From: Bolinopsis microptera
Lineage: Eukaryota; Ctenophora; Tentaculata; Lobata; Bolinopsidae
Assembly: GCF_026151205.1 (NCBI RefSeq)
Contig: NC_087073.1
Location: 18,628,837 to 18,692,836 of the forward strand
DNA: 64,000 nucleotides
Reading direction: 5' to 3'
Positions 1,771 through 61,985 of the stretch are shown one piece after another. The translations under genes and the position numbers were made by a program. Position 1 is the stretch's first letter. Each line of letters begins with the position of its first letter. The notes under the pieces are model-generated. The model was not told where the DNA came from. It was given only the letters and a program-made list of their open reading frames with translations, and made no database searches.

Positions 1771-2401
1771 AGAAGAAGACTTACGCGTAAGAGTTACTTA
1801 CTAAGAGTCATGAAATGTAAGGACTGAGGAGCCAGGACAATGGTAATGGAATAAATATGAATTAGTCTGATTTTTTGTTTCAATTTTGTTGTTTTTACTG
1901 ATTAATGTATTGACCATTTTTTTCTGTTTGTTTTACTGTGTTTTTATGTTTGTTTTTCTGTTTGTTTTACTGTTATTTGCTGATCTGTTATATATTGTTA
2001 TATATTTTCATATTTGTTTCAACTGAATTTTTCAATTCGATGTGTTCAATCATTTCAGTTATCTTTTAAATTTCAATCCATTCATTTTATTGTGTCCTAA
2101 AATGTTCAACAATGTCAATGACAGTGGCGCCAACTCCCACATGGAACCGGGATTATTAAAATTTACTACAATTACATTAGTATTATAAGGCATAAGTGCT
2201 AACTAAAAACGGCGTATCGTCTAGAAATAGCGATAAAAGAGGGAGTTTCTTCTACAAAATAGTATAAAGTCAGGGGACAGGGGTATAAACTAAAATTACA
2301 GTACTATTATATATTCGTGGTAATGATTATATTACTGGATTATATTGTATAATTATATTACTGGAGTCTTACTTCAAATCATGGTAGAGGATCGGGGGGC
2401 C
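1771..2401. other. Non-coding AT-rich interval
   Basis: No convincing exon on either strand. A T-rich stretch with repeated TGTTTTTCTGTTTG-like words lies at about 1875-1980 and may be the 3'UTR of the GPCR. Confidence 0.3.
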
Positions 2402-3435
2402 GGGGGGGGGGGGGGGGGCAATGGCATAAGATGGCATAAAATGGAGACTTTTTCTATGGAGAAAATGGAAAAACCCTTGCCGGATATTAGTCAGAAATTT
2501 CATTAATTTTCAGGAAAAATTCTCGAGGGCTAGGTCCCAGCTCATAATGATCAGAGTAATATGAACACTGGAGAAAAGTGGTTTCCAGGAAAAATTTTAA
2601 AAATTTTGACTTAGAAAACTTTTGACTTAGACAAAAATGTTGGACTTCTAGACAATTTTCGGTCTGAGTCATCCTCGATGAGTACCTCTGCTCGCACTGC
2701 AAAGGGGAGGCTTGCCTTCCGATATCACATTACAAGAGGGAACCCTCGAGTCCAAAATTGTACATTGAAAGGTATGTCCGGACTTCGAAAATCGAAAAAA
2801 TATTTTTGGCTAATAATGATCAGGGTAGCTTGAATCGTGAACAAAAGTAGTTTCCAGAAAAACTTTGAAAAGATTTTGACTTAGAAAATTGTCGTTCCGA
2901 GTCAACCTCGATACGTACCTCTAAAGGCAGGGCTCCCGCGCTTCCGAGCTCGCACTGCAAAGGGGAGGGCTGCCTTTCGGGATCGAATTACAAGAGGGAA
3001 CCCTCGAGTCCAAAATCGTATATCGAAGGGTAGGTCCGGATAGAAAAAAATGGAAACTTTAAAATCTCGGAAATATTTTTACAGGATTGTTTTCAGCTTG
3101 GAAAGGCAAAACGTTTGGTACCAAATATATGATATTTAAAAAACAAATTATTTTACAATTTGTGTTCGAGCTGGAAAATTGTTGAAGGTCGAGATACGAT
3201 AAAAGGGCAAAAATTGTCCTTTTTGGTGTTCGATATGATATTTAGATTCTAAGATGAATATTGTGTTTAAATCATTTCGTCCTAGGTCAAAATTTGGTAA
3301 AAAATTGGGTTTTTTTAATTTTTAGGTTTTTATATGGCATAAAATGGCATAAAATTGAGACTTTTTCTATGGATAAAATGGAAAAAACCTTACGTAATTC
3401 TCCATTTATGCCATTTATGCCATTGGCCCTACCCC
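2402..3435. mobile_element. Element A: 1-kb non-autonomous element with G-tract/C-tract ends and ATGGCATAA terminal modules
   Basis: The left end is a run of 17 G (2402-2418), then CAATGGCATAA and a second ATGGCATAA copy, then a stretch containing CTTTTTCTATGG and AAAATGGAAAAA (to about 2482). The same module recurs in the same orientation at 3334-3393. It is followed by inverted copies of the motif (TTATGCCATTTATGCCATT) and a C-rich end at 3427-3435. The outer ends are therefore inverted repeats while the modules are direct repeats. No open frame of note lies inside. I could not find a target-site duplication. The motif is shared with the 8.6-kb element at 47964-56570. Confidence 0.6.
2540..3041. 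repeat. Two diverged tandem copies (about 240 bp each) inside element A
   Basis: Copy 1 (about 2545-2782) and copy 2 (about 2812-3041) share the order ATAATGATCAG, GTTTCCAG, TTTTGACTTAGAAAA, CTCGCACTGCAAAGGGGAGG, TTACAAGAGGGAACCCTCGA and GGTCCGGA. The divergence (about 15-20% by eye) points to an old internal duplication. Confidence 0.65.
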
Positions 3436-3637
3436 CACTCCCCATCTGAACGTTTTACAGGCGATTTATTCTCGTTTTTTCAATCATTAAACTTAACTGT
3501 GACCGTCTATTTTTACGCTTAGATAATCGTTAGTCCAGCCTATTTCATAGTACGGCATAAATAAATTATTAAGATCCCGTAAATCACAAATAATCTTTAT
3601 CACCAGAATTGTGTCACCAAAATGTTAAGAAACTTAC

Positions 3638-45000: not shown

Positions 45001-48000
45001 AAAAGGTGTGATTTTTAAATGTTTCTTGATAATTTTACCACCATTGTCTCACTGTGAAATGTCGTTTAAAACGCTTCTTCGGACTATTCCTAATTGAGCT
45101 GAAGAAATAATAACTGATCGTCACATTGTCATGTACCCATTAGAGTGTATTCTCCAATTAACAAGCATGTAAGTAACTACATCATATCGCTCAAAACCAA
45201 GGAGTGGTTAATTTACCATCTTGTACTTATTACCAAAACAGCGCAGCAGAATTTTCTCAATAAAATGTCGAGAAAATAGTTAAAGAGAAACTAGTTAAAG
45301 AGATGTAGTATAAGATTAAACAATTCTCAGCTGCAAACTAATTAATGAGAGTAACGAGTAGACGCAAGAAATAAACGGAATCACCTGTTAATATTTGTTT
45401 ATAATCGGTTTCTAAAGTTTGGGTACCGCAGTTGTAAATGATATTTCGGCTGCCTCGTGTGAGCCACGTGGAAATTGCAGCTGTTGTAGCAGTTTTGGGC
45501 TATGGCAGGTGATTAGTAACTATTGCACGTGCGCTAATTATTTACTTCGATCATGAGTACTACTACCTGCAGCAGCATTACCACTTGACAAAATTGCTGC
45601 CCGACAAAAAGGCCCCCTGAGATCTAACTACCTAAACAATTAATAATTATACCAATCAGTGGCTGTTTGGTCTGACACGTATTAATAATTAACCAACTGT
45701 AATTCCCGACAATAAGGCCCGTGTAACTTTGTAAACTTGTATACTCAGTTTTATAATGCAAAACTCACTACAAGAAATTGAGCCTAGAAACATAATGTGT
45801 GTAATATTATTTCCTATGAGGCGTCAACATGACCTATTTTCAGTCACCGGACAAAACAATCATATCAGTTAAAAGGTCCCTCAATATTGCCAATCTACAT
45901 TGAAATGAATAATCATGATATAAATGTTCACTAGTTAGAGTCAACTTTTATTTTCAATGCACGTAGTTGGTTCGGATGTAGCACTGTAGCAGCTTGATTC
46001 AAATCTCATGAACAGACTTGTAACAATAGTGATCCACTCACGAAATTGCTGAAACTACGAAGTATTGATTTTGACCTCTATCCCGTACGGATAAAACTTG
46101 TATCATAAATTAAGCCTTAAAGTCTGGCCTCTTGCCGTCATTATATGGTACATATTCTAACATAACTATTTCATGTGACTCCAAATTATTTCAGTCTTAG
46201 TTACCCAGTGCACACGCTAAGTTATACTTAAACTTGATTTGAAACTTCTACCAAAATGTATAGTATAACAGTAATTCTATGCAATGATCTCCACCATCAT
46301 GGCTATTTATAGCTCACACCCTTTCAAGCACGTAAATGGGTAGCCACACTCGCGAGATAGTTTCAGCACCATCCTCTACAATAATGTACACTACACACGG
46401 AGATAGTGTTTAGAAGATACTATAATTCTAGTGGTGAGTTAGTGAGTTAAAGCACACACTGTTCTGCCGGAGAACCACCTCTAAAAACAAAACAATTTGA
46501 TGATTGCAACATTAACCATTATTAATGATTAACATGCTCACAATATATTTTTTCAGGTATAGTGAAGTTAGTGGACGACTTCGGGGGCGGCTCCTTTCTG
46601 ATAAACTTCTCAAACTTTTATCTCGAGTACGCCAAACACCACATTTGTTCTATTGTTCGGGAAAGATTTGGTCCCAAATCACATCGGATATTCTCCATAG
46701 TCATGGCCAAGAAAATGATCGAACAAAAACAGGTAATTTTATTATTATTTAGGTAAGTTTTCATAAAAACGATTTATGTTACTAGTTCTTTTTGTAGTAA
46801 AAAAACATACTATTTTTTATTTAGATAAGTTTTCATAAAAACGATTCCAGGTGCAACTTTGGTTGAAAAAAGACACTTCCATCTTGTGTTTAGCCAGTTT
46901 TTTGTATAGTTTTTAGAATGGTGTTATAAATCATAATTCAGTCGGAGAATTTGCCTCTCTCAGTAACGATTAAACACTACAGGTAGCTGAGTTAGCTCTA
47001 ATCCCCTATAAAGACGCTAAAGAGCTTCTCTACACCCTTTACACAGAGAACTTTCTAGAAATACAAGAATTGCACAGAACACCCGACTTTTCTCCTCTAC
47101 GAACCTTCTATCTCTTCCATGTGCCCCTGGAGAAGCTGACATTGAAGTTACTCAATGTTTGTTATAAGGCTATTTATAACCTTATGTCCCTAAGAAAAGA
47201 CAATTTAAATGTGAGTGTTGGTATCTTTAATTACATCCTAAAATGAATCTTGTCAAGGAACTTTTGCTTTTGTATCTGTATTATGTACAGTGTATTATAT
47301 CAGTGAATAATGGCTTACTCCAGAGCCTTACATTAAGCCGGAATGAAGGACTAAGTTATGACTTTACTAATTTCCAGGAGAACAGCAGATTGGTAGACAA
47401 GTCACTGCGCGCAGACGCGTCAACACTTGCAGCCACGCAACAAGGCATAGCACCGGAGGATCTTGAGGATATGCTGACTTCTAGCGAGAAACAGCAACTT
47501 GGTTAGTACACAATATGTGCATCTACTAACTAAAATGGCATAGATAGAAGATTTACATCCTACACACAGTGTAGGATGGCTTGGAATTATCTCAATGTCT
47601 AAGTTTGTATTTTGTTCCTTCTGGTTACAATTTTTACTTTGAATCTTCCCATGTATTACTCAGGAAACATTTCACTAAAGTTTTTCAATTCAAAATTTCC
47701 TCACTGTGCTAAGGGATCATTCACATGTTATGTTAGCACTAAGCATCCTATAGTGTAGGGGTTATAGAATATGGCATGAATTGAATCGTGATGTTTATTT
47801 TTGATCTGAGCTTAAGTTCAGTCAGAGGAAAATTAGGGTTTTGGTTCAGTACTCATTACCCAGTCTTAGAGCTACACACTAAAAGATGATAACCCCCGGC
47901 ATATAGTTGGGCATTGTACACTGACATGTCGATCATTCTAAATATAGACCAAAGGGGACGTGTGGGGGGTACCAATGGCATAAATGGCATAATGGAGAAT

Positions 48001-51000
48001 TGGCCAAACAAAATTTCCATTTATGCCATGAAATTTCTATGCCATTTGATGAATTTTATGCCATTTTTCTCCATTCTATGCCATTCGAAATATTAAATTT
48101 TAAAACTTTGAACTGAGAATTTAATAACGAATAGTCTGCACCCCACTAGTACTGTCCACCTTTATCTCTATTTGTTGTACTGACCCTGGTCATTAGAAAC
48201 ACCCCTAAAAGTTCGTTTTTTGACAACAAATTTAAAACTTCTGTAATTTCATTTCTGTTTTAGTTACGCATTTGATTTTTGGTATGCGTATAGAAAATCG
48301 ATACGGCTTTAAAATGAGATGTTCGGCGACCTCCTAGCTCACTCACTAGACTCAGTAGGAGTGATTTAACTGCGAGGGACAATTGAGGCTAACAAATTAG
48401 CCTCACCACTTTCAAAATATAACTTTCTTATGTTACGTCCATGATATCCAAGTTGCAAGTATAATTCATAGTGATTATACTTGATCGAGATCTAAGCTTT
48501 AAATATTCGAGGTGAAAATGAGGCTAACCACCTTTTGAGAGGGTGAAATGAGGCTAACAAGTATACTTTTGTGTATATTTTCGAGTTGGTTCGGTATTGT
48601 GACTATCTAATATGTCAACAATAAAGATTGATTCATCCTCTTCAAACTCAACATTTCAGAAATCGCCGAGTCTACTTGTAGGAGGCCAAAATGAGGCTAA
48701 TAAATAATTCGACCGCATTTTAACTTTAATTTACGGAAACAGGTTAACAACTCACAAGTTACTTGATATCTATGTTGCACATGAAATTCCGTCGGATAGC
48801 TTCTATACTTTTGTGTATATTTTCGAGCATGTTCGGTATTGTGACTATCTAATGTGTCACCAATAAAAATTTATGATTCGACCGCATTTTAAGTTTTAAC
48901 TTTAATGTACGGAAACATGTTATAGACCCACTATAAAACTTGTAATTGTAGCCCGAAGGTTATTGAGACTTTATCGAAACTTATGAGAGGTTGGATTGAG
49001 GCTACCTTCCCTCCTTGAGGCAAAATTGAGGCTAACAGATACACTACGCAGACAATTGTCACTGTGCCAGCTATCAAGTAGTTGCTGAGCAGCAGCAGCA
49101 GTTAGATGAAGAAAATGAAGTTGAGGAAGGAAATGTATTAAAGCTGTTGGCTAGAGTAGGACCCTTACTTCTATGGAGCTCTCTGGCCAATTGCTCTGGC
49201 AATGCTCTCCATGGGGCCATGTAATATCACATGATCTTGGCCAACATAACTGTATTTTATGTAATGAACAAATGCGTTTACAGTAACACTGACATGATGA
49301 AGAGAGTCAGGACTGTAAGACGGTACATTGACGATGGTGCAGGTTTCTTCTACAGCACTGAAAGGAAATTTGACCAGTGGATTTCCGATGTAAACAAATC
49401 CTTGAAAGAATATGGGCTACTCATTGACGAATCCCAATGGAAGGAAGTTGGCACGCCTGTGGCTTTTCTAGATATCGAGTTTTGTTTCGACCCTGAGGGA
49501 AACTTACAAACTGACCTCCATATCAAGGAAACAGATTCAAGGAGCTATCTACATTTTAGCAGTGCACATCCAAACCACATTTATAGTGGAATAGTTTACA
49601 GCCAGTGTATCAGACTCAGGAGAATAATCAACTCACAAGAACGACTGGAAACCAGATTGAGTGAATTAAGCCAAGCATTCAAGGCAGCTGCTTATCCCTC
49701 AAAAATGGTGAACAACATTAGCAAAAAAGTTCTCAACTCAGAAAGAAACCTTGAACGAAGACCTCCCAAGGACAACACATTGAAGCCAGAGATCCTACCA
49801 ATAAGGGTTGTCTCAACCTACGGAAGTGACTCTGACATTGTCACCACAGTGAAAAAGTATGAGGAGAACTTAAAGAAGACCAGAAGTTTTTGTAACCTGA
49901 GTGACTCAAAACAACAGAGTAACACCCTTGAAGAAAAGAAGAATGGCAAAAAGTTCTTCCAATTTGTCAAGAAAACAGGAAGCAACCTCAAAAGCCGGTT
50001 GGTTAAGGTGAAAGAAATAGCTCTGGGGAATAAGCATGGTCAAACAAGGCCGTGTAGAAAGAAGAACTGTGCAACGTGTGAGTCTATTGATAGTGCTACA
50101 CAAATCAGCATCAATGGGAAACGGGTAAAACCAGCACCAGGTACATGCATCACTTACAACATCATATATTTGATCAGATGTAAACTGTGTGAGAAACCAT
50201 ACGTAGGCAAATCCACCAGAATGCTACGGGTAAGGTTTGGCGAACACAGAAGAGCATTCTACAAGATCATCAGTGGGCAAAAGGTTGACACGGATGATGA
50301 CTCAAACTGCGTAGGACTCCACCTCCATATAGAGCATGGACTGACTCAGAAGGAAAATTTTAACAATAGTGTTTCAGTGTGTATCCTAGAAAATTCAAGT
50401 CCTAGTAGTTTAGATGTTAAGGAGCACCGATATATACATGCCTTAAATTCCCTCCGCCCCTCAGGAATGAATAGTACAAACCCTTTTAAGATTCCTTTAT
50501 TGCATAATTGATTTTTATTTTGCCTGAGGGGCTTTCCATAAATTATTTTTTTAAATAATTGGTCCTTTTATTGATGTTTCATATTTCACGGCAGTTTCCT
50601 TTTCAGAGTTTGAGTTTATATTTAGAAACTAACCATACTATCTTTTAGATTTATGTCACTTATGATGGCTCCGGCTGAAAGTACTATGACTCATTTTATC
50701 TAGAAGATTGTAGTTTCATTGCTTCTGAAGTAGCTATCAGTTCGCCGGTCAATGTTGGGTATAATACTCTTATCACATGATCTGATATCATGCCAAATTA
50801 GACTCTAAACTATAAAGTATAATAAAAATGGAACTGTTTGAGAAAAAACATTTTTCGTTACTTGGAAAGAGAATACTTACTCAGCTGTCAGCATAACGAA
50901 TCAGACGTACCTTGATCTTATATGTACTTGTGACGGTCTTGTTTTGTATTTAAGGGGGCATTATGAAATTTCTCTCGAAATTGATTTTATAGTTGTTTCT

Positions 51001-54000
51001 GATAGAGGAGAGTGATATCTATCTGCTGCTTTTGGTCCCATGGAAAAATATTGTTCCTAGCCGAATTTATTGCCGGTCAAAGGTCAGCGTTCATGTGTAA
51101 TTGTATTGCGCGAGCGATTTTCAATCGCGCGCCCTGAAAATTGAGTCTAAAATTCTATCTTCTCCTACATTTTTTGAGCAATCACCTTGAAACTTTCAGG
51201 ATATGTTCTAAGGACCGTTTAGAAGATTCCATTCGATCAGAAGTTTAAGATAGGCCTTAGAAAATTTTTTATTCGATTTTGAAAATCTTGGACCTGGAAA
51301 AATTGTCCAAAAACGAGGTCCAAGATTTTCAAAATCGAATAAAAATTTTTCTAAGGCCTATCTTAAAATTCTGATCGAATGGAATCTTCTAAATGGTCCT
51401 TAGAACATATCCTGAAAGTTTCAAGGTGATTGCTCAATAAATGTAGGAGAAGATAGAATTTTAGACTCAATTTTCAGGGCGCGCGATTGAAAATCGCTTG
51501 CGCAATACAATTACACATGAACGCTGACCTTTGACCGGCAATAAATTCGGCTAGGAACAATATTTTTCCATGGGACCAAAAGCAGCAGATAGGTATCACT
51601 CCCCTCTATCAGAAACAACTTTAAAATCAATTTCGAGAGAAATTTCATAAAGACCCCCCCCTGCCCCCTTAACTCTGCTGAAGAAGCAATTCCCTAATGC
51701 TGAAATCGTCACTTATTACCTTGGAAGTGATCAGAATGAGCAGCTGTTTGCATTTATTCGGGTTTCTTTTTCATCTGGTCGCTCAAGAAATACGGATGCG
51801 ATAATTATGGCCCATGGAATGGAGAGGAAGAATGTGTACAGTGCTTTATCATTACATGAAGACACATCTGCAATTGCACATGCACGTGGAAGTACAGTTT
51901 TGCATCCTACAGTTCACCTCAAAAAGGTTAAATCTACAGGCCAGAAAGCAGAACGAGTGAAATGGACTGGTGGTATGATAAGCCTAGGCAAGTTGGCAAA
52001 AACGCTGGACAGGGCATCGAGGGACTGCATTCGAGAAGGGAAAAGAAACAATTTCCCTGTGTTCGCCGCAGTCGCAGATCCTGAAGAACGGAGTGGGAAG
52101 CCAATCGTCCATGGCCAAGAACTTTCTTGGGAAGCTGTAGATGATGAAGCTGGACGACTTAGCTTATGAGGTAGAACCTGGAGTTGATGATTGTGATGAT
52201 GGAGAAACGATATCAACAGATAAATATATGGAACACTATCCTTCCGGTCTTTTGAGACACTCACGCTCAATGGAGGAAGAAGCACTTTATCAACAAAATC
52301 TCGTCTTTCAAGATTCAAGGGGGACGCGTTTGGAGTGTCTTCTGATGTTCGCATATACAATCAACCTGAATGCGGATGTTCAACAGTTTTGAAAGCTGGC
52401 AGTACAGAAACTCTTAAAGTCTTCAAATCTCAGCAGGACTTTGCAACAGGAGTGGTTAGATTTATTTCTTATAAGTCATGCCCGATGAAGTACTACTGCC
52501 AGGAACATAGCCTAATCAATGGATCTCCTAATGTTTGGCTACTCGTCGAAGACAAATACATCAGATGCATTGTTCCTTGATGACATTCAAAATCGTTGTG
52601 TTGTCAATGTTTGTATTCTGTACATTTTGAACATCTCACAATTTGCTTTTCTTGAATAGTGAAATGTTTGGTATATATTTGATATACGGTGACTTCCACA
52701 CTTGCATTCTACCGTCCTACTGCACTCAGTCCTAGTTAGGTGTCAGCACTACACTACATATACCGGCCTATCATCCCACATCCTCGTCTTTGATCAAATA
52801 ATTTGAGGCACAGTGTGTAACACTATAACTATAGTTGGCATTTCTGTTGGGCAAAAACGTTTTGGCAATGTATTGGCAGTTGGGATAGTGCTAAGCACTC
52901 TAAACTATAAAGGTGCATGGGAATGTTGGATTATGGTATGGTTGTCATATTGCTGGTGTGGCGTCCGCAATATTATCAGTCGCCTTTGAAAATCTACTAC
53001 AGATTTTCTTTCTGTATATCACTATACAGTTCCTCTTTAGAAAAAGTGCATGTGACAAGTAACGAGACAAGGATGCTCTAGGATCAGGAGCGACAAATGA
53101 TCAATTGTTCTAGACGTGAGGCTTTCTGCAGTAACGGCCCTAGCGAACAGGGGGATGGTTGTTCGCTTGAGTACTATGATGCGGTTATACAAGTCTGGCA
53201 AAACAATTTGTGACCTGCCTATTGGCCGGGCGCCGCCGTAGACTCAACACATGGTGTGTGGGGTATTTACCTCGGGCACACACCTTAATCTCTCGACCGG
53301 CGGGTCACACCCAAATCTCCTGCTCCAACTCTTTCAAAGGCTGGTACCCTACTACTACGTGGCCAGAAGGAAATTCTTGTAGGAACTCTTAATGTACGAA
53401 CAATAAGAGAACAATACAAGAGGGATGAGCTGGGTGTATGCATGAGGGATAGTGGCGTACATATTTTGGGCATTCAGGAGCATCGGGTAGTACATAGCAC
53501 TGAAATCGAGTATCAAGATCTTGGAAGCTCTCACCTCATAACAACTTCGGCATGGAGAACCAGCAATGGGGCGGCTGCTGGTGGGGTTGGTATTGTCTTG
53601 GACAAAAAGACAGTATTCAACTCATTGATTAGTGTATACTCACATGACAGGAGGACGATGGTAGCCAACTTTGCAGGGAACCCGGTCACAACTGTTATTG
53701 TGACTTATAGCCCGACAGAGGGGGCGACTGTCGACGAAGCAGAAAACTACTACGACAGCCTTGGTGGTGCCATCGACCAGATACCAGCCCACAACTTACT
53801 ATTCGTTGTAGGAGACCTCAATGCGCATGTCTCATCATCAGGAAACTGGACATCCTTCCACAAGGGTCCAGCAAACCGAAATGGTAGACTGCTAGAGGAT
53901 ATGCTGTTGGAGCGACAGCTAGAAATCACAAACACCAGATTTCAGAAGCGAAGAGGTAAACTCTGGACATATCTCTCAGATATGAGTCAAAGTAAATCTC

Positions 54001-56902
54001 AAATCGACTTCATCATTTGCCGGAAGAAATGGCGGAACTCCGTCAAGAACTCCGAAGCATATGGTAGTTTCCACAGTATTGGCTCGGATCACAGAGTAGT
54101 CGTAGCAAGGGTAAAGCTTAGTCTACGGATAAGCAAGACGGAGAAGAGGGCTCCGGTTCTGGACTGGTCTAAACTTAAAACTGATATCGCTCTACAAGAG
54201 AGGTACACAGTGGAAGTTAAAAACCGCTTTTCCATACTTGAAAAGGATGATCAGACGGCAACAGAAAGGTACCAATGCTTTATTGATGCGAATAGGACAA
54301 CTTCTCGACTTTTACTACCTGAAAAGGAGAAAAAGAAAAGATGTAAAATCTCAGCGACTCCAAGTGTTGAAATTGCCAGGCTGAAGCTGAGGGAATGTAG
54401 CATAAAATACCACTCAGATGCTACAGAAGACAACCGAATAGCTGTCCAAGAGGGCAAACAGAAGCTAGGCGATGCTTATCAAGCAGCCAAAGAGCACCTG
54501 CTGGAGGGGCAGGTCCGGGAACTGGAGGAAGCAAGTTGGCAGGGCAGACATGCTAAAAGCTGGACCATGATCAACAAGATCACAGGTAAAGCTCCATCAT
54601 ATACTGGCAAAATCAAGGGAAACTCACCAACGGAAAGGGTTCAGAAATGGAAGGACTATTTTGCTACTCTTCTCGGCTCACCACCGACGGTAGAGAACGC
54701 GGAAGAGGATATTGATCCAGTCCACCCACCTCTGAATATCGGAACAGAACCGTTTACGTTGGATGAGTACAGGAAAGCAAAGTCCAGCATAAAGGAAGGG
54801 AAAGCATGGGGTGACGACAACATAGCCCCAGAAGTCTTAAAACGATGCGACCTTGATCAAATTGTCTTAGACTTCTGTAACAATGCTCTATTGAAAGGTG
54901 AGAAACCAGACCAATGGTCAACTGCCAACATCATACCAATTCCAAAGAAGGGCGACCTTAGCGAACCAATGAACTATCGGGGAATAAGCTTGTCATCCCT
55001 AGTTGCCAAGTCTCTAAACAAGATGGTTCTAAACCGGTTGAAGCCAGAAATCGAGACAATTCTGCGTAGAAACCAGAATGGATTCAGACCAGGAAGGTCA
55101 ACAACTCAACAGATATTGGTACTGAGACGTCTTATAGAGGGTGTCAAGAGTCGGAAACTGCCAGCTGTTCTGACATTTATAGACTTTAAGAAGGCTTTCG
55201 ACAGTGTACATCGTGGGAAAATGCTAAAGATTCTAGAAGCTTACGGCATTCCAGTCAAAATCGTGCAGCTTATACGGCTCATGTACGAGAAGACAATGGC
55301 CAAAGTCCTAACTCCAGACGGAGAAACTGAATTGTTCGAGATACTTGCAGGTGTGTTACAGGGTGATACCTTAGCACCTTACCTCTTTGCAATAGTCATC
55401 GACTACTGTATGAGGCAAGCCATAGGCGATGATGCGGAGCGACTTGGACTCACCCTCGAACGTAGAAAAAGCAGAAGAGTGGGGCCCAAGATCATCACCG
55501 ATGTGGACTTTGCAGATGATATAGCACTTATATCTGAGGACATGGACAAGGCTAACGAGTTCCTGCTCAGAGTAGAATCGGCGGCAGCAAGCGTGGGACT
55601 ACACATAAACGAAGGCAAGACCAAGGTCATGACACTGAATATGGAGGATCGATCTAGCGACCTACAAAGTCGATCCGGGGAAGCCATAGAAAATGTAGAT
55701 GATTTCATCTACTTAGGCTCCTGGATTGAGAGCACAGATAGGGAGATAAGGGTTAGAAAGGGAAAAGCGTGGGGTGCCCTACATAGACTGAAGGATATCT
55801 GGAAATCCAAACTCTCAAAGAGCCTAAAGATTAGATTGTTCATAGCGGCTTGTGAATCAGTACTGCTCTACGGATCAGAAACCTGGACACTGACAAAGGC
55901 TCAAGAGAAAAGTTTGGACGGGACATACACAAAGATGTTGCGTATGGTGCTGGGTATCTCATGGAAGGACAAGGTCAGCAATATAACTTTGTATGGTAGC
56001 CTCCCAAGGCTGTCAAACAAGTTACGAAGCAGGAGATTAAAAATGGCGGGACACTGCATCCGACATCCTGAGCTACTTGCCAGTGATTTAGTCTTATGGG
56101 AACCTACGCACGGTAGAGCACAGCAAGGCCGACCAAGACAAAGCTACTTGTCTATGTTACTGAAGGAAGTTGGGACAAACTCTAAAGAGGAACTGCGAAC
56201 CCTGATGCGGGACAGGGATATATGGAGGGGGTTTTCTGGCGTAGATCGGACTTAGCTCCGACATAGTAGTAGTAGTAGTAGTAGTATACGGTAATACATT
56301 TCTATTTTTTTAATTTGTCATATGAATCTTTGACTTTAACGATCATTCCAAGCGTTATAAAGCATGAAACATGTCTCTTATTCAAGTACTAATAATATTT
56401 GCGAATTTAAAGTCATCCTAAAGGTCAAATATGAAGACCTAAATTCATGGCATAAATTGGCATAAATGGAGAATTGGCCAAACAAAATTTCCATTTATGC
56501 CATGAAATTTCTATGCCATTTGATGAATTTTATGCCATTTTTCTCCATTCTATGCCATTGGTACCCCCCCGGACGTGTTATAAAACGTTGACTAACAACG
56601 CCTAGTGAACAAAATGTGCTTAGAAAATTATGCGCATAAAATGTACCATTACTGGTACTGCCTTAATATGTGAACGGTCCTTTGATACTTTGAGTAAAAC
56701 ATAATCGCCTCTTTTTTATTCTTATTGTTCTAGAACATTACCAGATGACTCCACAAAATCACACCTATTTTGAGATTTCTTTACTTAATTCCCACCAGGA
56801 AGTTGTATGAGAGTTGTAAAGCGACTGGATCTAGGAGAAATCAACATTCTGGACAGTATTTCTGCGTTAACACATTTTGGGAACAACCAGAACGTTCACT
56901 GA
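42033..56902 (+). CDS. POLR3C: DNA-directed RNA polymerase III subunit RPC3 (C62/C82 homologue), nine coding exons
   Basis: Subunit of the Pol III heterotrimer (with the POLR3F and POLR3G products) that helps open promoters for tRNA and 5S transcription in the nucleus. Exons: 42033-42223, 42369-42630, 42878-43024, 43401-43523, 43750-43834, 46557-46732, 46983-47210, 47378-47501, 56799-56902. They sum to 1440 nt, a 479-residue protein against about 534 in human, and every junction is GT-AG and in phase. Family landmarks: N-terminal winged helix (KRTANQCLCVLIKHRFVR), DMAEVVLEELL, the acidic/basic linker PPTKKSRSSGG, GGGSFLINFSNF, VRERFGPKSHRIFSIVMAKK, IEQKQVAELALIP, KELLYTLYTENFLEIQE, SPLRTFYLF and the coiled C-terminus (EDLEDMLTSSEKQQL). 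The last exon, KRLDLGEINILDSISALTHF, aligns with the human KLDASEI region and ends at a TGA at 56900. Intron 5 carries an antisense GPCR; intron 8 (9.3 kb) is filled with transposons. The ATG lies 6 nt after a splice acceptor, so there is a 5'UTR intron. Confidence 0.92.
43972..44864 (-). pseudogene. Rhodopsin-like GPCR inside POLR3C intron 5, broken by a one-base frameshift
   Basis: A class A receptor antisense to its host gene. From the ATG at 44864, the first frame covers TM1-TM3 (GNLVVL, NLAVAD, C in TM3, then SLNVSK in place of DRY) and stops at about 44511. A second frame, open from about 44532 to 43972 with no ATG of its own, resumes with FPFLARIR, TM4 (FIWLAALP), TM5 (VIPGFIILG), TM6 (SVVFLISLLPVG) and a canonical TM7, NPIVYLITIRSF, plus a short tail ending EPTT. 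Alignment with the receptor at 608 needs one extra base between the SLNVSK codons and the second frame, with no splice signals between. A single-base deletion near 44532-44540 (or a sequencing error) explains it. Otherwise the sequence looks well preserved. Confidence 0.75.
44865..45955. other. Intronic sequence between the GPCR and its tail duplicate
   Basis: No coding sequence seen. Related words CCCGACAAAAAGGCCC and CCCGACAATAAGGCCC occur at about 45600 and 45708. Confidence 0.3.
45956..46060 (-). pseudogene. Duplicated GPCR C-terminal tail fragment
   Basis: About 95 bp closely match the 3' end of the neighbouring GPCR (43972-44055): both contain TAGCAGCTTGATTCAAATC, GAACA.ACTTGTAAC.ATAGTGAT and CTCACGAAATTGC.GAAAC on the plus strand. 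It covers only the last turn of TM7 and the tail. The match ends abruptly on its upstream side, so this is a relic of a tandem receptor duplication. Confidence 0.75.
48383..49037. repeat. Block of repeated TGAGGCTAAC motifs with internal tandem duplication
   Basis: TGAGGCTAA(C) occurs at about 48384, 48519, 48549, 48692, 48998 and 49028, with an inverse copy at 48398-48405 forming a hairpin with the first. Two diverged copies of a segment (ATACTTTTGTGTATATTTTCGAG, GTTCGGTATTGTGACTATCTAAT, ATTCGACCGCATTTTAA) lie at about 48562-48740 and 48804-48930. It may be a further small element of the same style or the subterminal region of element C. Confidence 0.55.
49231..50511 (+). mobile_element. Penelope-like element, 5'-truncated (RT end plus GIY-YIG endonuclease)
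   Basis: The 426-codon frame begins within the RT: ANITVFYV, then RYIDDGAGFF at about residues 30-39 with the YxDD-type catalytic pair, and AFLDIEF. A linker with a Cys cluster (PCRKKNCATC, about 271-282) precedes the GIY-YIG nuclease: YLIRCKLCEKPYVGKST at about 312-328 and RVRFGEHR. The RT fingers and N-terminus are missing. Just upstream a frameshifted RT-motif piece (PMGPC, about 49208-49222) suggests the coding sequence once continued. Penelope elements use this RT/GIY-YIG pair for target-primed insertion; this copy should be dead. Unspliced, it lies in the sense direction of POLR3C. Confidence 0.85.
50950..51672. mobile_element. Foldback (palindromic) element flanked by TTAA
   Basis: Arms of about 345-357 bp (50950-51295 and 51316-51672) are reverse complements with few mismatches around a 20-bp loop. 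Both outer ends read TTAA next to GGGGGCA (inverse TGCCCCC), so either TTAA is the target-site duplication, as in piggyBac-type MITEs, or it is part of the repeat. The left arm has a short gap near its outer end relative to the right arm's extra C run. No coding capacity. A transcript would form a long hairpin. Confidence 0.85.
51673..52579 (+). pseudogene. Unrecognised broken ORF between the foldback and the RTE LINE
   Basis: Coding-like sequence is open from the foldback boundary: LLKKQFPNAEIVTYYLGSD, AFIRVSFSSGRSRNTDAII, then the 120-codon frame from 51807 (HAHARG-type text, VKWTGGMISLGKLAKTLDRA, RNNFPVFAAVADPEER, ELSWEAVDDEAG). It shifts near 52150 into DKYMEHYPSGLLRHSRS and again near 52320 into FGVSSDVRIYNQPECGC and VRFISYKSCPMKYYCQEH, stopping at 52579. 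About 300 codons with two frameshifts. I recognise no family. It may be the remnant of the gene that belonged to element C, or a captured host exon set. Confidence 0.4.
53295..56285 (+). mobile_element. RTE-type LINE, nearly intact, with (TAG)n tail
   Basis: One uninterrupted frame runs from a stop at about 53292 to 56255 and is followed by a short (TAG)7 tail (56264-56285), the simple-repeat 3' end typical of RTE elements. The 5' untranslated part probably begins near 53100-53150. It lies in the same orientation as POLR3C, inside element C, and looks young because the frame is unbroken. Confidence 0.85.
53442..56255 (+). CDS. RTE-like LINE polyprotein (APE endonuclease plus reverse transcriptase)
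   Basis: A 937-codon protein for target-primed retrotransposition. The apurinic-like endonuclease occupies about residues 1-225: GIQEHR (E13), GDLNAH (D125, N127), QIDFI and GSDHRVV (D216, H217). The RT spans about 440-720: NYRGISLSSL, NQNGFRPGRSTTQQI, TFIDFKKAFDSVH, GVLQGDTLAPYLF and FADDIAL (about 689-695). The tail has YGSETWTLT, KMAGHCIRH and GRPRQSYLSMLLKE, as in RTE proteins. The first in-frame ATG is at 53442, but the frame is open about 49 codons further up with endonuclease-like sequence (KEILVGTLNVRTIRE), so the N-terminus is probably longer or starts at a non-ATG. All catalytic residues I can check are present, so the copy may be competent. Confidence 0.85.
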   Translation: MRDSGVHILGIQEHRVVHSTEIEYQDLGSSHLITTSAWRTSNGAAAGGVGIVLDKKTVFNSLISVYSHDRRTMVANFAGNPVTTVIVTYSPTEGATVDEAENYYDSLGGAIDQIPAHNLLFVVGDLNAHVSSSGNWTSFHKGPANRNGRLLEDMLLERQLEITNTRFQKRRGKLWTYLSDMSQSKSQIDFIICRKKWRNSVKNSEAYGSFHSIGSDHRVVVARVKLSLRISKTEKRAPVLDWSKLKTDIALQERYTVEVKNRFSILEKDDQTATERYQCFIDANRTTSRLLLPEKEKKKRCKISATPSVEIARLKLRECSIKYHSDATEDNRIAVQEGKQKLGDAYQAAKEHLLEGQVRELEEASWQGRHAKSWTMINKITGKAPSYTGKIKGNSPTERVQKWKDYFATLLGSPPTVENAEEDIDPVHPPLNIGTEPFTLDEYRKAKSSIKEGKAWGDDNIAPEVLKRCDLDQIVLDFCNNALLKGEKPDQWSTANIIPIPKKGDLSEPMNYRGISLSSLVAKSLNKMVLNRLKPEIETILRRNQNGFRPGRSTTQQILVLRRLIEGVKSRKLPAVLTFIDFKKAFDSVHRGKMLKILEAYGIPVKIVQLIRLMYEKTMAKVLTPDGETELFEILAGVLQGDTLAPYLFAIVIDYCMRQAIGDDAERLGLTLERRKSRRVGPKIITDVDFADDIALISEDMDKANEFLLRVESAAASVGLHINEGKTKVMTLNMEDRSSDLQSRSGEAIENVDDFIYLGSWIESTDREIRVRKGKAWGALHRLKDIWKSKLSKSLKIRLFIAACESVLLYGSETWTLTKAQEKSLDGTYTKMLRMVLGISWKDKVSNITLYGSLPRLSNKLRSRRLKMAGHCIRHPELLASDLVLWEPTHGRAQQGRPRQSYLSMLLKEVGTNSKEELRTLMRDRDIWRGFSGVDRT

Positions 56903-61000: not shown

Positions 61001-61712
61001 GAAGATTTTTCGAAAATGCATCTTGAGCCGCATCTTAGAATGTATTTTGTCGTGATGTTTAATTTTTAAATCTTTTCTCTCCACCAGACGTTTTATGCTG
61101 AAGAAAAGACAATAAAAGTTTTGATGGATTCAAATGAAGCTGACATTTGGGGAGTAGAGAAGAAGCTTAGACAACTCGAGCATATTCCTGATAACGGTAA
61201 ATTTTTATATGTACCTAAAACATCAATCGATAGTTTTATGTTATAGTAAATTTTCATTTTTACGTATAAAATATGGTTAAGCAAGTCACTAAAAGTTAAA
61301 ACGAACGTTTTATTTTCAGTTATCGATTACAGCAGCGTATATCTGGAAATCCAATACAATCCTCGCAAACTTGTAGAAATAAGGTTCGTTATTTTATTAT
61401 CTCCTTTTTTATGGTCCTTGAATTCTTCTATCAGACAGATTTGAGATGGAATTTGTGAATATAATTAGCAACCAGTTTAAAAGTATTATTTTATTACCGT
61501 AATGAAAAATATGACCCTACAGGCGAGAATGGGACGATTACCTGTGTGCGCCAGGGACCCCAGCAGGTACCCGCATTCCTACAACCACCCTGCTGCCTCC
61601 CTCTAACCCCAGTCCTCAATGGGGACAATACTTGCGAGTTGAAAGTAGCCACTCCCCCTCTACTTCTCACCAACCCCCGCCACCCCCAATGGAACCAATA
61701 CCTAAAAGTTGA
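58024..61712 (+). CDS. PDCD7: PDCD7 / U11-U12 snRNP 59-kDa protein homologue, nine coding exons
   Basis: A component of the minor (U12-type) spliceosome, part of the U11/U12 di-snRNP. Exons: 58024-58129, 58635-58753, 58898-58990, 59094-59285, 59469-59610, 60789-60871, 61088-61196, 61320-61383, 61523-61712. They total 1098 nt, a 365-residue protein (human about 485), with all phases agreeing. Order: a Pro/Gln/His-rich N-terminus (MPPQHQLPRHQYSP), a basic patch (NKRRKVE), then charged helices: EIDHWRATM, VLQKQRQTKRLLDTVKLL, TFVEPEVDQRFDRNV and TFYAEEKTIKVLM. The C-terminus, VEIRREWDDYL then LLPPSNPSPQW, matches the human IRHDWDQYL and VLPPLPSND region closely. The N-terminal Pro-rich part is shorter than in vertebrates. 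An upstream acceptor at 58018 suggests a 5'UTR intron. A minisatellite begins in the last codons. All introns here look U2-type. Confidence 0.9.
59837..59976. repeat. Short direct repeat in PDCD7 intron 5
   Basis: CAAGAATTTCGCCGCGGT followed by ACCACGC.CGATCAATTTTCCCT occurs twice, at about 59831 and 59931, 100 bp apart. Confidence 0.75.
60187..60752. repeat. Pair of approximately 195-bp direct repeats in PDCD7 intron 5
   Basis: 60187-60381 and 60553-60752 share TAACACATG...GAGCGTCG-like text, CGCAGCATAACAGACGCTTCC, AATTATAGGGGAGTGGTCTA, GGTCCATCGGG and CCAAACCCGATTACTTATTC, with about 90% identity. The right copy ends about 35 bp before the acceptor of the next PDCD7 exon. They may be two copies of a short interspersed element. 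Confidence 0.75.
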
Positions 61713-61985
61713 GATACTTGGTTCCAATACCTACAAGTTGAGATACTTGGTTCCAATACCTACAAGTTGAGATACTTGGTTCCAATACCTACAAGTTGAG
61801 ATACTTGGTTCCAATACCTACAAGTTGAGATACTTGGTTCCAATACCTACAAGTTGAGATACTTGGTTCCAATACCTACAAGTTGAGATACTTGGTTCCA
61901 ATACCTACAAGTTGAGATACTTGGTTCCAATACCTACAAGTTGAGATACTTGGTTCCAATACCTACAAGTTGAGATACTTGGTTT
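61695..61985. repeat. 29-bp minisatellite, about ten copies, starting in the PDCD7 stop region
   Basis: The unit contains GAGATACTTGGTTCCAATAC followed by CTACAAGTT. The array is nearly perfect except for its first and last units. The first unit supplies the last PDCD7 codons and the TGA at 61710-61712. A more diverged relative of the unit (CAATGGGGACAATACTTGCG) lies at 61617-61636 in the same exon. Confidence 0.9.

What the first reader, a model, noticed from the sequence alone, without database searches (positions are those of the whole stretch)
47964..56570. 8.6-kb element with outer G/C tracts, inverted ends and direct terminal modules
The outer ends are inverse copies (GGGGGGTACCAATGG / CCATTGGTACCCCCCC), yet the roughly 120-bp module next to each end is in direct orientation. 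The left module lacks the C-tract end and the right module lacks the G-tract start. An 8-bp repeat, GGACGTGT, flanks the whole, which argues for a single mobilisation event. I know of no named superfamily with exactly this layout.
Basis: partly seen in the sequence, partly recalled or inferred. Interest (0 to 1): 0.8.

Follow-up and report, generated by a model that had tools for sequence, protein, structure and literature searches.

The report
Composite-like DNA transposon with paired modules
The 8.6-kb stretch is one copy of a mobile DNA element, swollen by three later insertions, whose two ends look like two small complete transposons fused to their cargo after losing their inward-facing tips.

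Summary
In detail: one copy of a family in its 264.65-Mb genome. The exact end GGGGGTACCAATGGCATA occurs 134+137 times (control 0); the first 100 listed form 46 facing pairs. Target duplications of 8 bp or more flank 37 of 43 copies in hand; 1 of 1806 mismatched flank pairs reaches 8. So it is one transposed unit, not two neighbours. The 8.6 kb is a ~2.75-kb element holding three nested insertions: a Penelope-like fragment, a TTAA foldback and a non-LTR retrotransposon.

Each outer tip lies beside a ~95-nt direct module. Solo modules with both tips and own duplications exist. Of 39 longer copies none has an inner G tip and two keep an inner C tip. In large copies the two modules tend to change together, and one probable dimer exists. 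A diverged family at 2394-3443 has the same layout.

Closest precedent: KolobokP (PMC9587614), with 3-5-bp duplications, ~450/660-bp repeats and intact inner tips. Transposase superfamily unresolved; P-element profiles gave no significant hit. Verdict: new variant of a known kind.

The parts
47956..47963 (.). left copy of 8-bp target site duplication GGACGTGT
   Evidence: direct read
47964..47982 (+). left outer tip (G tract + GGTACCAATGGCATA), inverted copy of right tip
   Evidence: 19 nt, 100%; 134+137 exact genome matches to the 18-mer
47984..48085 (+). left module; ends at GCCATT, inner C tip absent
   Evidence: 44 exact genome copies of the tipless junction CTATGCCATTCGAAATAT
48086..49237 (+). 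internal region, 5' part, with 'GAGGCTAAC' repeats of which L035 has more units
49238..50770 (+). nested insertion: Penelope-like retroelement fragment (open frame 49225-50511, GIY-YIG match below the curated cut-off; 'Penelope-like' is my reading), 13-bp duplication TATCACATGATCT
   Evidence: absent from L034, L035 and L042
50771..50953 (+). internal region, includes the start of the ~344-aa ORF of the family (broken here)
50954..51668 (.). nested insertion: foldback element, 342-nt arms 97% complementary, TTAA on both sides
51669..52686 (+). internal region with the rest of the family ORF (6 stops inside in this copy)
   Evidence: 91% identity to L034 ORF
52687..56291 (+). nested insertion: non-LTR retrotransposon, open frame 53289-56255 (endonuclease + reverse transcriptase), (TAG)n tail
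56292..56446 (+). internal region, right arm, homologous to the inside of the 324-bp short elements
56447..56559 (+). right module, direct copy of left module; inner G tip absent
56551..56570 (-). right outer tip (TATGCCATTGGTACC + C tract)
56571..56578 (.). right copy of target site duplication GGACGTGT
2394..3443 (+). second, diverged family with the same layout: inverted tips 2402-2429/3415-3442, direct 58-nt modules 2421-2478/3334-3391 (93%)

Best explanation
It is a non-autonomous copy of a cut-and-paste (DDD/E-type) DNA transposon with an 8-bp target duplication and a composite-like body: module - internal region - module, the modules in direct orientation. SHOWN: a single module with both tips occurs as a complete inserted element with an 8-bp duplication; the longer elements keep the outward tips while inward tips are gone (2 of 39 keep an inner C tip); the window copy is inflated by three nested insertions. 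SUPPORTED: the two modules of one large element change together; a (module-internal)2-module dimer exists. INFERRED: a transposase, whose C-terminal part is probably what the family's ~344-aa ORF encodes, binds the ATGGCATA/TATGCCAT motifs in the module (6 in the left, 5 in the right module region) and cuts at the G/C-tract tips. A solo-type module came to flank the internal region on both sides. Loss of the two inward tips then stopped the modules from leaving on their own, so only the outer pair works and the whole moves as one. Recombination or gene conversion between the direct modules keeps them alike and also makes solos and dimers.
For: Unit transposition: duplication of 8 or more in 37 of 43 copies (33 of 39 non-solo) against 1 of 1806 control pairs. 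Paired ends: 46 facing pairs and 8 unpaired among the first 100 of 271 places. Solos: 4 of 4 fetched have the duplication (L005, L014, L027, L063; that of L063 lies in a tandem repeat). Tips: of 44 loci scanned, 44 have one G tip and only L061 and L069 have two C tips; 44 and 49 exact tipless left junctions in the genome against 1 exact inner-tip junction. Change together: site T/G is TT in 5, GG in 12, discordant in 1 of 18 large elements; mean mismatch 0.33 within against 0.73 between elements, 24 of 20000 shuffles as low. Between one short (L052) and one large (L035) element the right modules are 66/79 identical with 22 gap columns while the adjoining internal arm is 142/144, yet left = right within each. 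Dimer: one 91/91 match to internal-module-internal at C7:15027296-15027386, overlapping the second of two tipless junctions 216 bp apart. Same layout in a diverged family in this window. Nested insertions.
Against: No intact autonomous copy and no recognisable transposase: the ORF has no Pfam match at E<=10 (its 172-aa window piece only DUF4687 at 0.17), and NCBIfam and PDB gave only insignificant matches (E 0.15 and above); a relative also has none in Pfam. P-element RNase H models find nothing significant in the genome, although these models also failed to ring in the tool's controls. Among 16 short elements there is no left-right correlation per copy, and in the B-like set of 7 (with L038, L045, L050) the shuffle test is weak (0.14). 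The large-element test uses copies picked as best hits to the window's left module and does not correct for shared descent. The dimer rests on coordinates and a 91-nt match; its right end was not read. The order of events (composite first, tips lost later) rests on two copies with an inner tip. The link between the ORF and the tips is by co-occurrence only.
Confidence: 0.68

Rival explanations
1. An ordinary terminal-inverted-repeat transposon whose subterminal region was copied from one end to the other by gene conversion; it was never a composite of two solo elements, and solos are just internal deletions between the direct repeats.
For: Modules carry motifs in both orientations, so mispaired repair between ends is easy; solos combine the left start and right end of a full element, as a deletion between direct repeats would; duplicated or tandem TIR regions are known in MULEs (PMC3310237, sections read).
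Against: The left module includes the sequence that belongs next to the C tip, useless at a G tip, and L069 and L061 keep a C tip there; the same arrangement recurs in a diverged family.
Confidence: 0.24
2. Two neighbouring, independent insertions of a short repeat that happen to flank 8.6 kb.
For: Short solo copies with both tips exist.
Against: One octamer flanks the whole; neither module has its own inner tip; the arrangement with other octamers recurs in 33 of 39 non-solo copies; internal sequence is homologous between copies.
Confidence: 0.02
3. A retroelement with terminal direct repeats (Penelope-like or LTR/TRIM-type), explaining the identical modules and the reverse transcriptase genes inside.
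For: Direct terminal repeats, solos and modules that change together are LTR-like; the window copy contains retroelement genes.
Against: Those genes lie in blocks absent from L034, L035 and L042; the Penelope-like block has its own 13-bp duplication; the outermost 19 nt are inverted; the 324-bp and solo forms read carry no retroelement genes.
Confidence: 0.03

Closest known systems
KolobokP (Kojima & Bao 2022, PMC9587614)
   Same: Internal region between two direct terminal repeats that have their own short inverted tips; solos and (repeat-internal)n-repeat multimers; a DNA transposon
   Different: 3-5-bp duplications (Kolobok: TTAA) against 8 bp here; repeats of ~450 or ~660 bp against ~95-113 nt; inner tips kept there, lost here; encodes a recognised Kolobok transposase and usually a His-Me nuclease, neither found here
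P superfamily (P element, THAP9, Galileo)
   Same: 8-bp duplication; target preference here R-T-C-C-G-G/A-T-T is close to GTCCGGAC (PMC3276498, passages); internally deleted copies and MITEs known (PMC1562414, passages)
   Different: No significant match to P RNase H profiles in the genome; no direct terminal modules reported in the passages seen
MULEs with multiple TIRs (PMC3310237) and MULEs in general (PMC6446971, passages)
   Same: Duplicated terminal regions; 8-11-bp duplications
   Different: There mostly tandem external and internal TIRs; here one module per end in direct orientation; no MULE domain in the ORF
Tn3-derived TIME-COMPs, bacterial MITE-bounded composites (PMC13367494, start of abstract in the listing)
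   Same: Two short non-autonomous elements bound and move a segment
   Different: Bacterial, Tn3 family; nothing seen on loss of the inner tips

Membership tests
KolobokP | direct terminal repeats each with own inverted tips | tested here: inconclusive
   direct modules yes; longer copies keep only outward tips except an inner C tip in 2 of 39; solos have both
KolobokP | 3-5-bp target duplication (TTAA in Kolobok) | tested here: not met
   duplications of 8 bp or more in 37 of 43 copies, exactly 8 in 30
KolobokP | Kolobok transposase and His-Me nuclease in the internal region | tested here: not met
   no Pfam match for the family ORF; only copies in hand tested, no autonomous copy known
P superfamily | 8-bp duplication with GTCCGGAC-like target | tested here: inconclusive
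   8 bp met; T20 C19 C20 G20 of 37 at positions 2-5, but position 7 is T 14, A 8
P superfamily | P-type RNase H transposase | tested here: not met
   PF21789 no match at E<=0.001, PF21787 best E 0.47; the control genomes of that tool did not ring either, so sensitivity is unproven
MULE | MULE transposase domain, 8-11-bp duplication, usually long TIRs | tested here: not met
   no MULE domain in the family ORF; inverted part only 19 nt; duplication length compatible
hAT | 8-bp nTnnnnAn duplication and hAT dimerisation domain | tested here: not met
   position 7 A in 8 of 37; no hAT domain in the ORF; autonomous copy not available
LTR or Penelope retroelement | reverse transcriptase belonging to the element | tested here: not met
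   retroelement parts lie in blocks absent from L034, L035 and L042

The most novel reading that the evidence does not exclude
An LTR-like DNA transposon: a lineage of 8-bp-duplication elements that arose as a composite of two solo transposons, became one heritable unit by disarming both inward tips, and keeps its two terminal modules identical by a copying step linked to its transposition (circular or replicative intermediate, or conversion), giving solos and dimers as by-products. The layout is held by at least two diverged families in the same genome.
Probability: 0.3. Interest if true: 0.75.

Novelty: new variant of a known kind. Interest (0 to 1): 0.58.

Why it matters
Composite transposons are generally viewed as opportunistic and can fall apart when one flank leaves. 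The KolobokP authors speculate that some mechanism must keep such an architecture intact in animals, for instance by inhibiting excision of the solo repeats (PMC9587614, Discussion read). This family offers a simple, testable answer, loss of the inward tips, in a lineage with a different target duplication, and it ranges from solos (~130 bp) through 324-bp forms to multi-kb forms in one genome.

Tried and rejected
Two neighbouring insertions: rejected by duplications at other loci. Retroelement: rejected by copies without the nested genes. P-element membership: suggested by the duplication consensus and by the motif SDxNEQLFAxIR, read by eye as like a P/THAP9 C-terminal motif (recalled), but profiles gave no support and neither did PDB sequences. 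NCBIfam: one insignificant match, E 0.15. Structure prediction of the 172-aa window ORF piece gave mean pLDDT 39.5, so no fold search was made. In IMG/VR, 21 stretches matched the protein patterns and none was confirmed; no exact copy of the tip. A per-copy left-right test on 16 short elements showed nothing. A duplication around the second family was looked for by eye and with one octamer and not found. An autonomous copy was sought with the family ORF: 123 matches (117 of 193 candidates scored); nine nearly identical ones have stop-free frames of 344-349 aa over all, or all but one residue, of the query; frames of 434-766 aa occur in relatives at 31-43% identity.

Host: 13 scaffolds of 15-26 Mb make up nearly all of the genome (contig lengths), as in lobate ctenophores (Mnemiopsis 13 chromosomes, 248 Mb, start of abstract of PMC11797021); an inference, not tested.

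Full report
Observation. The window lies at G000:C2:18628837-18692836 of a 264.65-Mb genome in 232 contigs. The inverted 19-nt ends, the 95/95 identical direct modules and the octamer GGACGTGT are all present. The exact 18-mer GGGGGTACCAATGGCATA occurs 134 times forward and 137 times reverse in the genome, with 0 control matches. The tool lists the first 100 places; they form 46 facing pairs and 8 unpaired ends, with sizes 116 and 129 bp (2), 305-325 bp (19), 609, 823 and 1706 bp (3) and 2531-8604 bp (22). The 116-bp pair is the left module of L069, which kept its inner tip.

Target duplications. Of 43 copies with both ends in hand (4 solos, 39 longer), 37 have a flank match of 8 or more, exactly 8 in 30; the 7 longer matches mostly run into the G or C tracts or a tandem repeat. 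When left and right flanks of different copies are paired, 1 of 1806 reaches 8. The misses are L039, L047, L053, L057, L068 and L069; the fetched L068 begins inside its G tract. A 44th copy, L046, has no right end in the stretch fetched and was left out. The 37 octamers favour T, C, C, G at positions 2-5 (20, 19, 20, 20 of 37); 20 of 37 for C or G has a binomial probability of 2e-6 at a 19% background. The palindrome excess over column frequencies is slight (0.02). P elements of flies target GTCCGGAC and hobo GTNCGNAC (PMC3276498, passages).

Nested insertions. Against L035 (3216 bp), L042 (2652 bp) and L034, copies of the same type, the window copy has three extra blocks: 49238-50770, which I read as Penelope-like, with a GIY-YIG match below the curated cut-off and a 13-bp duplication TATCACATGATCT; 50954-51668, a foldback with 342-nt arms and TTAA on both sides; and 52687-56291, a non-LTR retrotransposon with endonuclease and reverse transcriptase domains and a (TAG)n tail (its duplication, perhaps TATACGG, is not certain). 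They total 5853 bp, leaving 2754 bp.

Forms of the element. Solos: L005, L014, L027 and L063 were read, all four with a duplication (that of L063 lies in a tandem repeat); two more are inferred from coordinates (C8:10635313, C7:755154). Short elements of about 324 bp have a related module on each side of a piece of the right internal arm, about 145 nt. The large elements read fall mainly into two types: A, with an inner block bounded by 208-nt inverted repeats (L031), and B, with the ~344-aa ORF (L034, L035, L042, window); L038, L045 and L050 have other internal structure. Scanning 44 loci, each has exactly one G tip; only L061 and L069 have two C tips, the inner one closing the left module and followed by GTTTGATA (in that scan the outer C tips of L056 and L057 were missed by the looser match and L046 has none, while one search found those of L056 and L057). 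Exact counts in the genome: tipless left junction 49 (short type) and 44 (large type); inner-tip junction 1 exact. Those patterns are exact, so all are lower bounds.

Modules change together. In 18 large elements the T/G site near the module end is TT in 5, GG in 12 and discordant in one (L049), and the split crosses the types; the window copy is B-type but TT. The summed within-element mismatch is 6, against a shuffled mean of 12.7; 24 of 20000 shuffles are as low. In an A-like set of 11 the fraction is 0.015, in a B-like set of 7 (with L038, L045, L050) 0.14. The copies were chosen as best hits to the window's left module, so left modules are a biased sample; right modules were not selected. 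Between one short (L052) and one large (L035) element the right module is 66/79 identical plus 22 gap columns, the left 57/63 plus 32 gap columns, and the adjoining internal arm 142/144 plus 19 gap columns, while left and right agree completely within each over their shared length (63 and 95 nt). Among 16 short elements there is no per-copy correlation. One place, C7:15027296-15027386, matches an internal-module-internal junction over 91/91 bases, the only full-length match among 40 scored of 285 candidates (the others match from base 7), and it overlaps the second of two tipless junctions 216 bp apart in the same orientation, the spacing expected of a dimer. Its right end was not read.

Second family. 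At 2394-3443 of the window, inverted tips (28 nt, 82%) enclose two direct 58-nt modules (93%), and again the left lacks the C end and the right the G start. No duplication was recognised; the copy looks old. Its right module has many relatives (40 scored of 429 candidates); the one whose two borders were read (C7:1070831-1070990) has a tipless inner start and an outer C tract. Two further copies show a left-hand match to the right module in direct orientation (C1:10303586 and C7:19782437). Its internal sequence is also a dispersed, often tandem repeat; one copy (C11:1359785-1360042) lies about 250 bp from a diverged relative of the B-type ORF (L071), which is suggestive only.

Protein. The B-type ORF has 123 matches in the genome; nine nearly identical ones have stop-free frames of 344-349 aa over all, or all but one residue, of the query; the window's copy is split by the foldback and holds stops. 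Relatives at 31-43% identity include frames of 434-766 aa. [quoted passage not shown] the reading of the E in the latter as the last catalytic residue is mine. No library match supports a superfamily, and P-type profiles found nothing significant in the genome, with no ring in the tool's controls either.

Comparison. KolobokP (PMC9587614; parts 1-4 of 6 read) is the nearest known architecture; its authors state that it is unlike any other DNA transposon and speculate on what keeps it intact. A library search for KolobokP, long terminal direct repeats or LTDR found only that paper on transposons among the 12 listed of 174; other searches, judged by titles and starts of abstracts and by the passages read, showed no further case with 8-bp duplications. 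Subscription journals and Repbase were not searchable. The family differs from KolobokP in duplication length, repeat length and loss of inner tips, so it is not filed there; it works like it.

Judgement. Shown: one mobile unit, its nested insertions, the recurrent layout, solos, absence of inward tips in all but two of the longer copies. Supported but not proven: modules changing together, one dimer. Inferred: DDD/E transposase acting in trans, composite origin, tip loss as the lock. Confidence in the whole account 0.68.

Noticed in passing
window 2394-3443: A second, diverged and old-looking element with the same layout of inverted G/C-tract tips and direct modules.
   Followed up: partly
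window 50954-51668: Foldback element with 342-nt arms at 97% and a 20-nt loop, flanked by TTAA; G/C-rich tips.
   Followed up: partly
window 52687-56291: Non-LTR retrotransposon with one 988-codon open frame and a (TAG)n tail.
   Followed up: partly
window 49238-50770: Penelope-like fragment (my reading) with a weak GIY-YIG match and a 13-bp target duplication.
   Followed up: partly
L031 (and other A-type copies): Inner block with 208-nt inverted repeats that hold 88-nt direct units, and a 194-aa ORF without a Pfam match; by eye like the C-terminal part of a MULE transposase (recalled).
   Followed up: no
L036, L042, L059, L060 tips: G and C tracts at the element borders vary from about 5 to about 50 bases between copies, on one side or both.
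   Followed up: no
L047: Copy containing very long G- or C-rich low-complexity stretches that read as poly-proline or poly-glycine frames.
   Followed up: no
window 61695-61984: Ten copies of a 29-bp tandem repeat, 99% alike.
   Followed up: no
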